From: Kroppenstedtia eburnea
GTDB taxonomy: Bacteria; Bacillota; Bacilli; Thermoactinomycetales; DSM-45169
NCBI RefSeq assembly: GCF_013282215.1
Contig: NZ_CP048103.1
Span: 3,286,001 to 3,350,000, forward strand
DNA: 64,000 nt
Direction of reading: 5' to 3'
Every line of letters starts with the position of its first letter. Position 1 is the first letter of the stretch. Below the pieces are notes generated by a model. That model saw only the letters and a list, made by a program, of their open reading frames with translations. It was not told where the DNA came from and ran no database searches. The translations under genes were made by a program, and so were the position numbers. Shown piece by piece: positions 3,263 to 37,739 of this stretch.

Positions 3263-5560
3263 TCATCCTTTTCGCCTGTTTCTTTTGCCTCCGGGCCCCT
3301 TCTCCTTGCTTTTCCTGCGGCGACCGGTTGACGGTTTCCCCGACGTGGACGGGATGGTATGGGTCGCCACAGGTTTCCGCAGCTTTTTCACCTCGGGCTC
3401 CGTCGAGGGCACAGTTGTGGCACGGGGTGTGTCGGAATCCTCCCTCTCCGTGAATTCAAAGTCGACCTTGCGCTCATCCAGGTTGACCCCGGTCACCCGC
3501 ACCTCCACCTGGTCCCCGATATTGTATGCTTTTCCGGTCCGTTCCCCGATCAGAGACATGGTGTACTCGTTGAAATGGTAGTAATCATCGGTCATGTAAC
3601 TGACGTGGACCAGCCCTTCCACGGTGTTTTCCAGTTCGACAAAGACACCGAAGGAGGTGACACTGCTGATCGTTCCCTTGAATGTCTGTCCCACCTTGTC
3701 CATCATAAACTCGGCTTTCTTCAGATCATCGGTTTCCCGCTCAGCGTCAATGGCGATCCGCTCCCGGTCCGAGGTGTGGTCCGCCGCCGTTGGCAACCAT
3801 TCCTTGAAATGACCCCGCCGCTTGTCCGGCAATTTCCCCTTGTTTTCCCATACTTCCCGGATGATCCGGTGGATCGCCAGATCGGGATAGCGGCGGATGG
3901 GCGAAGTGAAATGGGAGTAATACTGGGCTGCCAGACCGAAGTGACCGAGACATTCCGGTGAGTATTTGGCCTGTTGCATTGAGCGCAACATCACCCTGCT
4001 GATCACCGGCTCTTCCGGTTCTCCTTTTATTTCTTCCAGTAACTGCTGAAGGGCGCGGGGCTTGATCCGATCCGCCTTTCCCCGGACGGAGTGGCCAAAA
4101 CGGGTGATAAACTCAAAGAAGGATTGCAGCTTTTCCGGGTTGGGACGCTCATGGATCCGGTACATAAAGGGAATCTTCAGCTTGAAAAAGTGCTCCGAAA
4201 CCGTTTCATTGGCTGCCAACATAAACTCTTCGATCATCTGTTCCGCCACGGTCCGGGGCCTTTTTACGATCTCCATCGGCTTTCCCTGTGGATCCACCAG
4301 GATCTTGGCCTCGGGAAAGTCAAAATCGATCGCTCCCCGGGCCACCCGTCGCTGCCGCAGGGTCTCCGCCAGTCGCCCCATCAGTCGAAAATTTTCCACC
4401 AAGGGCTGATACCGCTTAATCAGCTCCGGGTCTTCATCCACCAGAATCCGCTTCACATCATGATAGGTCATCCGTTCGTCGGTTTGGATCACACTGGGAT
4501 AGATCTCGTGGTGGATCAGATTCCCCTGGCCGTCCAGCTCCATATCACAGGTCATGGTGAGGCGGTCCACCTGGGGATTCAGACTGCAGATCCCATTGGA
4601 CAGGCGTTTGGGAAGCATCGGAATCACCCGGTCCACCAGATAGACACTGTTTCCCCGAAGATACGCCTCCCGGTCCAGCGCGCTGCCTTCTTTTACGTAA
4701 TAGCTGACATCGGCAATATGGACACCCAGCCGGATGTTGCCGTTGTCCAACTGTTCCACGGAAACGGCGTCATCCAAATCCTTGGCGTCTTCCCCGTCGA
4801 TGGTCACCATCCGCCGCCCGCGAAGATCCCGGCGCCCCTGGATCTCATCGGCAGTGATGGAGTCCGGGACTGCATCGGCCTCCTCCATCACCTCTTCGGG
4901 AAATTCCTCCGGCAGATGATATTTGCGGATAATCGACAGAATATCCACCCCGGGGTCGTCTTTATGACCGAGAACTTCCTTCACTCTGCCTTCGGCGCTG
5001 CGCCGCCCTTTGGGATAGCCGGTCAGTTCGACCACCACTTTATCCCCTTCTTTGGCGTCGCCTTTGGCTTCCTTGGGGATAAAGATATCCGATGACAGAC
5101 GTTTGTCATCGGGAATGACAAAGCCGAAGTGTTTGGAGGCGGTATAGGTGCCCACCGCTTCCGTCCGCCCCCGCTTTAAAATGCGCACGATTTCCCCTTC
5201 CGGTCTCATCCCTTCCTTTTTGTAACTCTCCACCCGGGCCAACACAAAATCCCCATCCATGGCTCCGTTCATATCCGTCCCGTGGATAAAGACATCCTGT
5301 TCAAAGGGAAACTCCGCATCGGGAAGAACAAAACCGAATCCCTTGGCATTTCCCTGCAACCGCCCGCGAACCAGATTGAGGCGCTCCGGCACTCCGTAGC
5401 GGTGGGTTCGGGTGCGGACGATCTTCCCCTCCGCTTCCATCTGATTCAGGATGCCGATGAAAGTGTCCCACTCCAGATCGGCAAAGGATTGGTGCAATTC
5501 TTCCGCAGTCAGGGGTTTGTATGCATTTTTTCTCATGAATTTCAGAATTTCCGGTTCCAC
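3263..5560 (-). CDS. rnr: Ribonuclease R
   Basis: This 765-residue 3'-5' exoribonuclease degrades structured RNA and works with SmpB/tmRNA on defective messages. Visible domains: winged helix (1-65), two cold-shock folds (about 68-130 with GFGFVLPD and 140-200 with FGFVIPDD), the RNB catalytic domain (about 245-575) whose metal-binding aspartates sit in DGEDAKDLDDAV (256-267), an S1 domain (about 640-720), and a basic Lys/Arg/Gly-rich tail. The start is GTG, with AAAGGAG upstream. It follows the esterase gene by 36 bases and precedes smpB by 82, matching the yvaK-rnr-smpB order of B. subtilis. Confidence 0.96.
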   Translation of the reverse strand: MEPEILKFMRKNAYKPLTAEELHQSFADLEWDTFIGILNQMEAEGKIVRTRTHRYGVPERLNLVRGRLQGNAKGFGFVLPDAEFPFEQDVFIHGTDMNGAMDGDFVLARVESYKKEGMRPEGEIVRILKRGRTEAVGTYTASKHFGFVIPDDKRLSSDIFIPKEAKGDAKEGDKVVVELTGYPKGRRSAEGRVKEVLGHKDDPGVDILSIIRKYHLPEEFPEEVMEEADAVPDSITADEIQGRRDLRGRRMVTIDGEDAKDLDDAVSVEQLDNGNIRLGVHIADVSYYVKEGSALDREAYLRGNSVYLVDRVIPMLPKRLSNGICSLNPQVDRLTMTCDMELDGQGNLIHHEIYPSVIQTDERMTYHDVKRILVDEDPELIKRYQPLVENFRLMGRLAETLRQRRVARGAIDFDFPEAKILVDPQGKPMEIVKRPRTVAEQMIEEFMLAANETVSEHFFKLKIPFMYRIHERPNPEKLQSFFEFITRFGHSVRGKADRIKPRALQQLLEEIKGEPEEPVISRVMLRSMQQAKYSPECLGHFGLAAQYYSHFTSPIRRYPDLAIHRIIREVWENKGKLPDKRRGHFKEWLPTAADHTSDRERIAIDAERETDDLKKAEFMMDKVGQTFKGTISSVTSFGVFVELENTVEGLVHVSYMTDDYYHFNEYTMSLIGERTGKAYNIGDQVEVRVTGVNLDERKVDFEFTEREDSDTPRATTVPSTEPEVKKLRKPVATHTIPSTSGKPSTGRRRKSKEKGPGGKRNRRKG

Positions 5561-35592: not shown

Positions 35593-35632
35593 AAAGAGAC
35601 CGGTCAGCCAAAACTGACCGGTCTCTTTTTCT
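35593..35632 (+). terminator. Terminator of pyrD
   Basis: A perfect 15-bp stem AAAGAGACCGGTCAG / CTGACCGGTCTCTTT with a 6-base loop ends in five T residues, 5 bases after the stop. Confidence 0.9.
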
Positions 35633-35711: not shown

Positions 35712-36230
35712 GTGAAAAAAGGTGTGGTCATCTGGTTCACCGGTTATCCCAATTCCGGAAAGTCCACCATCAGCAGAAAAGTGAACCAAAGGCTGAAAGC
35801 TGCGGGGTATCCCGTGGAGCGGATCGACAGCGACGAGGCCCCCCGATCCCTCACCAAAGACCTGAGCCCGGATTGGCGGACACGCCAATTCCAGAAATGC
35901 GCGAATTTGACGTTCATTTCACATATACTCTATAAACACGGAATTATTGTATTGCTCTCTTCCATCGGCCGCTTTCGGGAGTTGCGGGAAAGTGCCCGCC
36001 AACAGGTCGGGGATTTTCTGGAGGTTTATCTGAAATGCCCCCTGGAAATCCGGTTGGAACGGGATCACGACCATGGGAAATATGAACGACATGCTGCCAC
36101 CATCCATTACTATGAAGAGCCTGAAGCACCTGAGTTGATCATCGAGACAGACCGTTGTTCCGCCGATGAAGCCGCCGATGCGGTGATCCGTCTCCTCCAC
36201 GAGGGAGGGTATATCCAATCCGAAGTATGA
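35712..36230 (+). CDS. APS-kinase-like P-loop protein
   Basis: The 172-residue protein starts at GTG behind AAAGGGGAATC. Walker A GYPNSGKST (11-19) and the following RIDSDEAPRSLTKDLS match adenylylsulfate kinase (CysC), which phosphorylates APS. Downstream it diverges: the family motif around ENIRR is replaced by WRTRQFQKCANLTFISHIL, and the segment before the C-terminus (LKCPLEIRLERDHDHGKYER) keeps the general kinase shape. No sulfate-assimilation gene is nearby, so the substrate is uncertain. It pairs with the next gene, 24 bases away. Confidence 0.75.
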   Translation: MKKGVVIWFTGYPNSGKSTISRKVNQRLKAAGYPVERIDSDEAPRSLTKDLSPDWRTRQFQKCANLTFISHILYKHGIIVLLSSIGRFRELRESARQQVGDFLEVYLKCPLEIRLERDHDHGKYERHAATIHYYEEPEAPELIIETDRCSADEAADAVIRLLHEGGYIQSEV

Positions 36231-36254
36231 CTTGTTGCGGAGAGGAGGCTGTTC

Positions 36255-37739
36255 ATGGAGATCCACGAATTTCTGCCCGGACTGTACGGCGGCGGGCGTC
36301 TGGACCTGGATCCCCGGTGCTGGTCCTTTATCCGTTCCCACATCGATGTCGTGGTCAACCTGAGAACGGTGCCCGATTCTCCCCCCTTCGATTTTACCGG
36401 ACGCCGCTTGCTTTGGGTGCCCATCCGGGACAAACAGGCACCCGATCTCTCCTGGATCCGGGACATGGTCCTTCTGCTGGACCGTTGGCTGGATGACGGA
36501 CATTCCATCTACGTCCATGATACCGGCGGCATCAACCGGCTCGGATTTATGGTGACCGCGATCATGATGAAACGGTGCGGCCTCCCCTTGAACCGGGCAC
36601 TGGACCAGGCACGCCGGATCAAACCGGACCTTCACCCCAAGCCTTGGTATATGGATCTGCTTCGCCGATTGGATGCCAGTCTGAAAAAGGAGCCGCCACG
36701 GGTCGACGGCGTGTTCCGGGTCAAAGCGGATGTGTATCTCAACCCCGAGACCATCCGTTGGTTGGTCAGGGAACATTACGGCCTGACCGTCCGCTCTCTG
36801 GAGAAGGTTCGGGGAGTGTACCGGGTGGAGACGGATCGAGGGGATTATGGATTCAAAAAAGCGGATGAACTGCCCGATCTCCCCTTGATCGCCAACTGTC
36901 TCCGTCATATCAGGGAAAATGGATTCGAGCGGATCCCGGAACCGGTGGCTGCCATCGACGGGAAGCTGATGGTCGACCACAAGGGGGAACCCTACTTTAT
37001 GGAAGAATGGCTCGATCTGAAGGAGATCCCCCCATACAGCCTCCCCTACTTCGAAAAAATGGGTGTCGCGCTGGCAGAGTTTCATCGTGCATCCGCCGGA
37101 CTGGCTCCGCCGGAAACCGCCCCGGGCCGCAATCGGTGGGGCAAACATCCGGCCCTGCTCGCCAAGGCTTCGCAGCGACTGGAAACATGGCGCCGTCGAT
37201 TCCGAAACTCACCTGCTGATGCCCCCGCCCAACTGGCCTTTCTCTTTACCCGCTGTCAACTGGCACGGCAAACCATCCAGGAGGTTTCCCAGAACACTCT
37301 CTTACAAGTTCACCCCGAATCAGCTGTCTGGTGTCACAATGCTCTCCAACACCGCAATATCATGTTGGACCGGCAGGAGCAAATCTGGTTTATCGACTTT
37401 GAAACCCTTGCCTACGCAGAGAGGGTCCGGGATCTGGCCCATCTGCTGGAGCATCACGCCGCACCCTACGGTTGGCCCCCATCCGCTGTACGGCAGTTTC
37501 TCTCCGCCTATGAATCGGGTGCCGCCGCCCCGCTGAGCCGGGAGGAGTGGCTCCTCCTTCGCGCTCATCTCACCTTTCCCGAACGCCTCTATAAACGAGT
37601 GCGGCGCTGTTACGGCCGTCCCCACGCCCGCTCCAAGGACTGGCGCGAATTGCGCAAGTTGTTGCAGCGGGAACAGATGAAGGAGAGTCTGCTGTACCAG
37701 CTCGCTCTCCTTACCCCCGGGGGATCACCGGAAGGATGA
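36255..37739 (+). CDS. Fusion of phosphatase-like and CotS/APH-like kinase domains, both lacking catalytic residues
   Basis: The 494-residue protein has an N-terminal dual-specificity-phosphatase-like part (1-140: VVVNLRT, LLWVPIRDK, then YVHDTGGINRLG at 86-97) in which the nucleophilic Cys of H-C-x5-R is Asp89. Residues about 170-470 resemble spore-coat CotS / aminoglycoside-phosphotransferase kinases: YGFKK as ATP lysine region, MEEWLDL hinge, and CHNALQHRNIML at 360-371, where the catalytic Asp of HxDxxxxN is Ala363. The metal-binding Asp (FIDFE, 381) remains. It is co-directional with the APS-kinase-like gene. Its C-terminus overlaps the convergent CocE-type gene by 29 bases. Function unknown; a scaffold or regulator is possible. 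Confidence 0.75.
   Translation: MEIHEFLPGLYGGGRLDLDPRCWSFIRSHIDVVVNLRTVPDSPPFDFTGRRLLWVPIRDKQAPDLSWIRDMVLLLDRWLDDGHSIYVHDTGGINRLGFMVTAIMMKRCGLPLNRALDQARRIKPDLHPKPWYMDLLRRLDASLKKEPPRVDGVFRVKADVYLNPETIRWLVREHYGLTVRSLEKVRGVYRVETDRGDYGFKKADELPDLPLIANCLRHIRENGFERIPEPVAAIDGKLMVDHKGEPYFMEEWLDLKEIPPYSLPYFEKMGVALAEFHRASAGLAPPETAPGRNRWGKHPALLAKASQRLETWRRRFRNSPADAPAQLAFLFTRCQLARQTIQEVSQNTLLQVHPESAVWCHNALQHRNIMLDRQEQIWFIDFETLAYAERVRDLAHLLEHHAAPYGWPPSAVRQFLSAYESGAAAPLSREEWLLLRAHLTFPERLYKRVRRCYGRPHARSKDWRELRKLLQREQMKESLLYQLALLTPGGSPEG

What the first reader, a model, noticed from the sequence alone, without database searches (positions are those of the whole stretch)
35712..37739. Two-gene unit: APS-kinase-like ATPase plus a pseudo-phosphatase/pseudo-kinase fusion
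Seen: the second protein has a phosphatase-type P-loop with Asp89 where the nucleophilic Cys belongs (VHDTGGINR), and a CotS/APH-like kinase domain with Ala363 where the catalytic Asp belongs (CHNALQHRN), while other residues (Arg95, Asn368, Asp381) are kept. It is 24 bases from a divergent CysC-like P-loop protein with an intact Walker A. Known: Cys and Asp are essential in the two classical enzyme families. Inference: the fusion may bind phospho-ligands and regulate or scaffold the kinase-like partner, possibly in envelope or spore-coat chemistry. I know of no described system of this form.
Basis: partly seen in the sequence, partly recalled or inferred. Interest (0 to 1): 0.72.

Follow-up and report, generated by a model that had tools for sequence, protein, structure and literature searches.

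The report
Two dead-enzyme domains beside kinase-like protein
In a spore-forming bacterium, a protein built from a disabled phosphatase-like part and a disabled kinase-like part is encoded beside a small kinase-like enzyme; relatives keep the disabled residues, so this is probably a maintained spore-related helper and not a decayed gene.

Summary
P1 (35712-36230) is an APS-kinase-fold protein with intact Walker A. P2 (36255-37739), 24 bases on, fuses a DSP-phosphatase-like domain (D89 for Cys, R95 kept) to a CotS/YtaA-like domain (A363 for the catalytic Asp; K201, N368, D381 kept). Local decay is unlikely: the kinase-like half lies in a supported clade of 7 proteins, each with Ala or Gly there and the seven other checked ATP, metal and structural residues kept. 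It fits the published class of spore-coat pseudokinases (BSKs). The phosphatase-like half belongs to a small family with Asp/Glu at the nucleophile site in 10 of 13 members, Cys in 3. P1-type and kinase-clade genes co-occur in 4 of 398 Bacilli genomes (3 genera), adjacent in all 4. In one relative (G015) the domains are separate genes in a run with two CysC-like kinases, about 6 kb from a CotS-type kinase within a glycosylation/sulfation cluster. P1 has a shortened cap without the FTG motif, so it is probably not an APS kinase. Best reading: a CysC-derived small-molecule kinase with a non-catalytic, nucleotide-binding partner in spore-surface chemistry. Pairing and lost residues are shown; function and complex formation are inferred. 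New variant of a known kind.

The parts
35593..35628 (+). intrinsic terminator-like hairpin after pyrD, separating it from the two-gene unit
   Evidence: 15-pair stem then T run (3 such sites found against 2.3 expected in shuffles); both arms are the same in K. guangzhouensis
35712..36230 (+). CysC-like kinase, type A (P1): APS-kinase fold, Walker A GYPNSGKST, shortened cap without FTG
   Evidence: PF01583 6.8e-26; below the apsK cut-off; alignment with 6 canonical CysC-like rows; model mean pLDDT 81, nearest 7yq0 APS kinase TM 0.83
36255..37739 (+). fusion protein P2: DSP-like pseudophosphatase plus CotS/BSK-like pseudokinase
36255..36689 (+). DSP/PTP-like domain, residues 1-145; D89 in the P-loop, R95, N94, D59, K60
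   Evidence: PF00782 above gathering cut-off; family alignment and tree
36705..37736 (+). CotS/BSK-like kinase-fold domain, residues 151-494; A363 for the catalytic Asp; K201, H277, H361, N368, D381, E383, D393 kept

Best explanation
P1 is an active ATP-dependent small-molecule kinase derived from APS kinase but with a different acceptor. P2 is its non-catalytic partner: the kinase-like half still binds nucleotide and metal but cannot transfer phosphate, and the phosphatase-like half is a repurposed, charge-reversed pocket or docking surface. Together they would work as an active-kinase/pseudo-enzyme pair in making or modifying a spore-surface or envelope carbohydrate. Shown: lost and kept residues, their conservation, gene pairing, and the setting in two relatives. 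Inferred: activity and acceptor of P1, nucleotide binding by P2, complex formation, and the spore role.
For: Kinase half: 7 of 7 clade rows have A (4) or G (3) at 363, none has an acidic residue between H361 and N368, and K201, H277, H361, N368, D381, E383, D393 are invariant in 7 of 7; the clade is supported 100/98, apart from the 7 Asp-bearing rows (96/91). The spacing matches YtaA H237, D239, N244, D257, D269 named in PMC2860764. Phosphatase half: acid at the Cys site in 10 of 13 family rows, R95 in 13 of 13. Pairing: P1 type in 5 of 398 Bacilli genomes; kinase clade in 7 of 398 (12 matches at 1e-60, of which 7 at 1e-165 or better are the clade and 5 at 1e-62 to 1e-78 are the Ser-bearing sister group); both in 4, adjacent in 4 of 4; hypergeometric 1.7e-7 by genome, 1.5e-4 by genus. 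In G015 the order is B, A, PTP, KIN on one strand with gaps 97, 15, -25 (a later KIN start is possible). P1 keeps Walker A and the RD pair, but 5 of 5 A and 3 of 3 B rows lack eight cap residues and the FTG motif that 6 of 6 canonical rows have. Setting: in G015 a CotS kinase lies about 6 kb and ATP sulfurylase about 1 kb away, with sulfotransferases, a canonical CysC and glycosyltransferases further off; in Tepidibacillus gerPC and gerPE lie about 3 kb away on the other strand.
Against: No complex, binding or activity was tested. Three of 7 kinase-clade genomes (G002, G033, G048) lack the P1 type, and G023 has types A and B with only a Ser-type sister kinase elsewhere. The PTP relatives in G075, G141, G171, G181, G191, G160, G219 and G020, and on two plasmids, have no CysC- or kinase-like ORF in the flanks held (about 1.5 kb for most, 4 kb for the plasmids, over 5 kb for G020). 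The second CysC-like gene (B) lies far away in this genome and was not found in K. guangzhouensis at E 1e-25. The window and Tepidibacillus surroundings that I read show no sulfation cluster (by eye). The P2 structure model was too poor to use (mean pLDDT 41).
Confidence: 0.42

Rival explanations
1. P2 is simply a spore-coat structural pseudokinase of the BSK kind with an extra domain; its position next to a CysC-like gene is a shared operon without physical or biochemical partnership.
For: BSK pseudokinases are known, and yutH or ysxE mutants make normal-looking but more sensitive spores (PMC2860764). The kinase clade occurs without P1 in 3 of 7 genomes, and P1 without it in 1 of 5.
Against: Adjacency in 4 of 4 genomes with both, over 3 genera, with overlapping PTP and KIN genes in G015, is more than a chance neighbourhood.
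Confidence: 0.27
2. The domains are not dead but do other chemistry: the kinase-like half a SelO-type nucleotidyl transfer that needs only the metal Asp, and/or the PTP-like half a carboxylate-based reaction using D/E89 with K60.
For: K201, N368, D381, E383 invariant in 7 of 7. K60 and N94 both kept in 8 of 10 acidic PTP rows, K60 in 0 of 3 Cys family rows.
Against: No precedent for an Asp nucleophile in the PTP fold was found in one search (listing only). Two plasmid acidic rows lack both K60 and N94, and a distant Cys row (G099) has N94. The SelO comparison is recalled, not tested.
Confidence: 0.13
3. P1 still makes PAPS (a diverged APS kinase) and the unit serves spore sulfation.
For: Fold and best hits are APS kinases; in G015 the unit lies near ATP sulfurylase and sulfotransferases.
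Against: Eight cap residues and FTG missing, DGD..R and ISPY motifs replaced in 8 of 8 A and B rows; score below the apsK cut-off; G015 has a separate canonical CysC.
Confidence: 0.12
4. Local decay of a once active fusion gene in this strain.
For: Both catalytic residues are gone; dN/dS of P2 (0.29) is higher than that of P1 and pyrD.
Against: dN/dS well under 1 with the frame open in two species; the same kinds of substitution in separate genera.
Confidence: 0.03

Closest known systems
Bacterial spore kinases (BSK: YtaA/CotI, CotS, YutH, YsxE), with pseudokinase classes
   Same: Sequence similarity over the domain (YtaA 2q83, 2e-22); loss of the D239 equivalent while structural residues stay, as published for five BSK classes (PMC2860764; abstract, passages and section 15 seen)
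   Different: Below the CotS and YsxE curated cut-offs; own clade with A/G at the catalytic site; fused to a DSP-like domain in Kroppenstedtia and beside CysC-like kinases
Dual-specificity phosphatase-like pseudophosphatases (STYX, MK-STYX; their substitutions are recalled)
   Same: Related to DSPs by profile (which also lists STYX 2r0b); conserved Arg; nucleophile Cys lost
   Different: Asp or Glu at the Cys site in 10 of 13 bacterial members, with K60 in 8 of those 10
APS kinase (CysC)
   Same: Fold, Walker A, RD pair
   Different: Shortened cap without FTG, changed acceptor-site motifs, below the apsK cut-off
CDP-phosphoramidate (cytidine diphosphoramidate) kinase of Campylobacter; its CysC kinship is recalled
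   Same: An APS-kinase relative with another acceptor, used in surface-sugar modification (recalled)
   Different: Not compared by sequence here; only search listings were seen

Membership tests
BSK / CotS family | CotS subfamily profile TIGR02906 above curated cut-off (172.7) | tested here: not met
   147.7 bits; G015, G033 and G002 members 133.9, 120.1 and 138.8; the G015 CotS gene nearby scores 275
BSK / CotS family | homology to YtaA with the His and Asp that hold the C-lobe (H148, D269) | tested here: met
   2q83 at 2e-22 with the clade profile; H277 and D393 invariant in 7 of 7
BSK / CotS family | catalytic Asp D239 (active classes only) | tested here: not met
   A or G in 7 of 7; published pseudokinase classes also lack it
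BSK / CotS family | packaged in the spore coat | not testable with these tools
   only gene neighbourhoods were seen
YsxE | equivalog TIGR02904 cut-off 263.55 | tested here: not met
   71.7 bits
Dual-specificity phosphatase | DSPc profile PF00782 above gathering score | tested here: met
   35.4 bits against 33.5
Dual-specificity phosphatase | HCX5R motif | tested here: not met
   H-D-X5-R; H-[DE]-X5-R in 10 of 13 family rows
APS kinase | PF01583 match and fold | tested here: met
   91.6 bits against 21.1; TM 0.83 to 7yq0
APS kinase | apsK equivalog TIGR00455 cut-off 138.7 | tested here: not met
   110.0 bits
APS kinase | substrate-clamping cap with FTG | tested here: not met
   eight cap residues and FTG absent in 8 of 8 A/B rows, present in 6 of 6 canonical rows (the broken Tepidibacillus B gene was left out); cap role from PMC13213808 passages
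APS kinase | phosphorylates APS | not testable with these tools
   needs an assay

The most novel reading that the evidence does not exclude
A small bacterial family uses the PTP fold with a carboxylate (Asp/Glu) plus, in most members, a conserved Lys in place of the Cys nucleophile, and in Kroppenstedtia it is fused to a kinase-fold domain that keeps the ATP and metal residues but not the base. The fusion and the CysC-derived kinase would form a small phospho-transfer or nucleotidyl-transfer machine of a new kind for spore-surface sugars.
Probability: 0.08. Interest if true: 0.85.

Novelty: new variant of a known kind. Interest (0 to 1): 0.5.

Why it matters
Here two different dead-enzyme folds are joined in one bacterial protein beside an active-looking kinase, and relatives have the same parts as separate genes, so scaffold and activator ideas can be tested part by part. 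It would also give a lead to the function of spore pseudokinases, which the 2009 BSK paper left open, and to CysC-like kinases that have lost part of the APS cap.

Tried and rejected
Local decay: opposed by dN/dS and by the same kinds of substitution in other genera. Mobile or viral origin: the acidic PTP profile found no relative in viral contigs, and one acidic relative (G171) found none in phage records; two plasmid records carry a PTP relative, one of them in two identical copies. Anti-phage defence: no PADLOC match for either protein at E 0.01. Structure of P2: model too poor (mean pLDDT 41, three rows), so no fold search was made with it; D89 and A363 were placed by sequence alignment to solved structures. 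Co-folding of the pair was not on offer. A single origin of the acidic site is not shown: the tree needs 3 changes between acid and Cys, at least 2 forced by supported branches, and clustering against shuffles is weak (50 of 500 as low). A K60/N94 signature for all acidic members: only 8 of 10 have it. Sulfation as the job of P1: kept as a rival only.

Weak points in the counts: in the kinase tree rows over 450 aa were cut by 150 residues (meant for the fusions, but also applied to L024 and L032), L027 was dropped for lack of a motif match, matches under 35 bits were left out, and L011 was labelled HEP by the pattern although one search shows CHGSLHHEN. In one search the broken Tepidibacillus CysC-B gene was left out. 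The phylum scan gave 3 of 398 at 1e-12; its two new rows are distant Cys forms, used as outgroup and not counted among the 13. The hypergeometric values do not correct for relatedness beyond genus.

Literature: full-text searches only; PMC2860764 seen as outline with abstract, passages and section 15; PMC13213808 as passages; all others as listings.

Full report
Check. P1 matches APS_kinase (6.8e-26); P2 matches DSPc (1.1e-8) and APH (8.9e-16) and, among curated models, CotS (3.7e-43, 147.7 bits, below the cut-off of 172.7). Alignment to solved structures puts D89 on the cysteine of a DSP-like phosphatase and A363 on the YtaA aspartate. A terminator-like hairpin at 35593-35628 separates the pair from pyrD.

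Not decay. Kroppenstedtia guangzhouensis carries the same pair (P1 92%, P2 88% identical). NG86 dN/dS is 0.135 for P1, 0.338 for the PTP part, 0.275 for the kinase part and 0.126 for pyrD: both halves of P2 are constrained, though less than P1 and pyrD.

Kinase half. Seven proteins form a clade (100/98): the window, K. guangzhouensis, G002, G033, G015, G048 and Tepidibacillus decaturensis (G001 is K. guangzhouensis and G088 Tepidibacillus by identical DNA). The catalytic Asp is A in 4 and G in 3; no acidic residue lies between H361 and N368; K201, H277, H361, N368, D381, E383 and D393 are invariant in 7 of 7. A sister group of 8 has Ser there (CHGSLH), another group of 11 has Asn in 9, and the canonical HQD/HRD group of 7 stands apart (96/91). 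The 2009 BSK paper (PMC2860764; outline with abstract, passages and section 15 seen) reports that five BSK classes lost this Asp and proposes a common non-enzymatic role, so this half is a new clade of a known kind.

Phosphatase half. Of 398 Bacilli genomes 11 have a relative at 1e-12: 8 acidic and 3 Cys. With two plasmid records (the second copy on one plasmid is identical) this makes 10 acidic of 13. R95 is kept in 13 of 13; K60 and N94 together in 8 of 10 acidic rows; K60 in 0 of 3 Cys rows. The tree needs 3 changes between acid and Cys, at least 2 of them forced. The phospho-ligand idea is weakened because a carboxylate sits where the phosphate would bind; this is inference.

P1. Aligned with 6 canonical CysC-like proteins, P1-like (A, 5 rows) and its paralogue (B, 3 rows) keep Walker A and the RD pair but replace DGD..R by DSD..P and ISPY by [SC]-[IV]-G-R, lack eight residues of the cap, and have no FTG at the aligned place. 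In APS kinases the cap clamps the substrate and holds residues thought important for binding and catalysis (PMC13213808, passages). The model (mean pLDDT 81, but under 50 at 115-132, the cap region) is nearest to APS kinase 7yq0 (TM 0.83). P1 is thus probably an active kinase with another acceptor; activity is inferred.

Pairing and setting. P1 type A occurs in 5 of 398 Bacilli genomes and the kinase clade in 7 of 398 (the 5 weaker matches there are the Ser group); 4 have both (G000, G001, G015, G088), adjacent in each. Hypergeometric values are 1.7e-7 by genome and 1.5e-4 by genus. G015 has B, A, PTP, KIN as one run, KIN overlapping PTP by 25 bases if the first start is used; Tepidibacillus has B, A, KIN. 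G023 has A and B only. The other PTP relatives have no such genes in the flanks held. In G015 the run follows, within about 40 kb, sulfotransferase-family proteins (three, one below the Pfam cut-off), a canonical CysC, sulfatase- and phosphodiesterase-like proteins, glycosyltransferases, a CotS kinase above its cut-off and ATP sulfurylase, with sugar-nucleotide and CgeB-like genes named by eye. This resembles the ytaA/cotS cluster of PMC2860764 (section 15). In Tepidibacillus gerPC and gerPE are about 3 kb away on the other strand. The window's nearest neighbours (names read from sequence, not searched) give no spore hint.

Conclusion. A rare, selected unit of likely spore-formers in which a CysC-derived kinase is paired with one or two pseudo-enzyme domains, fused only in Kroppenstedtia among the genomes seen. 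The pseudokinase is of a known kind; the acidic PTP-like domain, the fusion and the CysC pairing were not found described in the searches named in Tried and rejected. The mechanism is inferred; no binding or activity was tested.

Noticed in passing
L119, L120, L056 (G015:C9:1318000-1366000): Large cluster with glycosyltransferases (CgeB-like by eye), sulfotransferases, sulfatase-like proteins, canonical CysC, ATP sulfurylase, a CotS kinase and sugar-nucleotide genes: suggests sulfated spore-surface glycans.
   Followed up: partly
L002:4757-5245: CysC-B gene of Tepidibacillus decaturensis appears frameshifted near its end in this assembly, with family-like sequence going on in another frame.
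   Followed up: partly
L058:6999-7526 (G000:C1 near 985,000): The second CysC-like gene (type B) of this genome stands apart, upstream of what look like ABC sugar-transporter genes, far from the window.
   Followed up: partly
L001 about 5060-5450: K. guangzhouensis has several hundred extra bases between the pyrD terminator and the CysC-like gene compared with the window; nature unknown.
   Followed up: no
L110:4001-4435 and L111:4007-4435: Plasmid-borne DSP-like proteins (an unnamed bacterium, in two identical copies, and Priestia megaterium) also have Asp at the Cys site, with Gln for N94 and Ser for K60.
   Followed up: partly
L108 and L109: In G181 and G191 the acidic PTP gene lies between an aldehyde-dehydrogenase-like and a homocysteine-methyltransferase-like gene (names read from sequence), a shared neighbourhood.
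   Followed up: no
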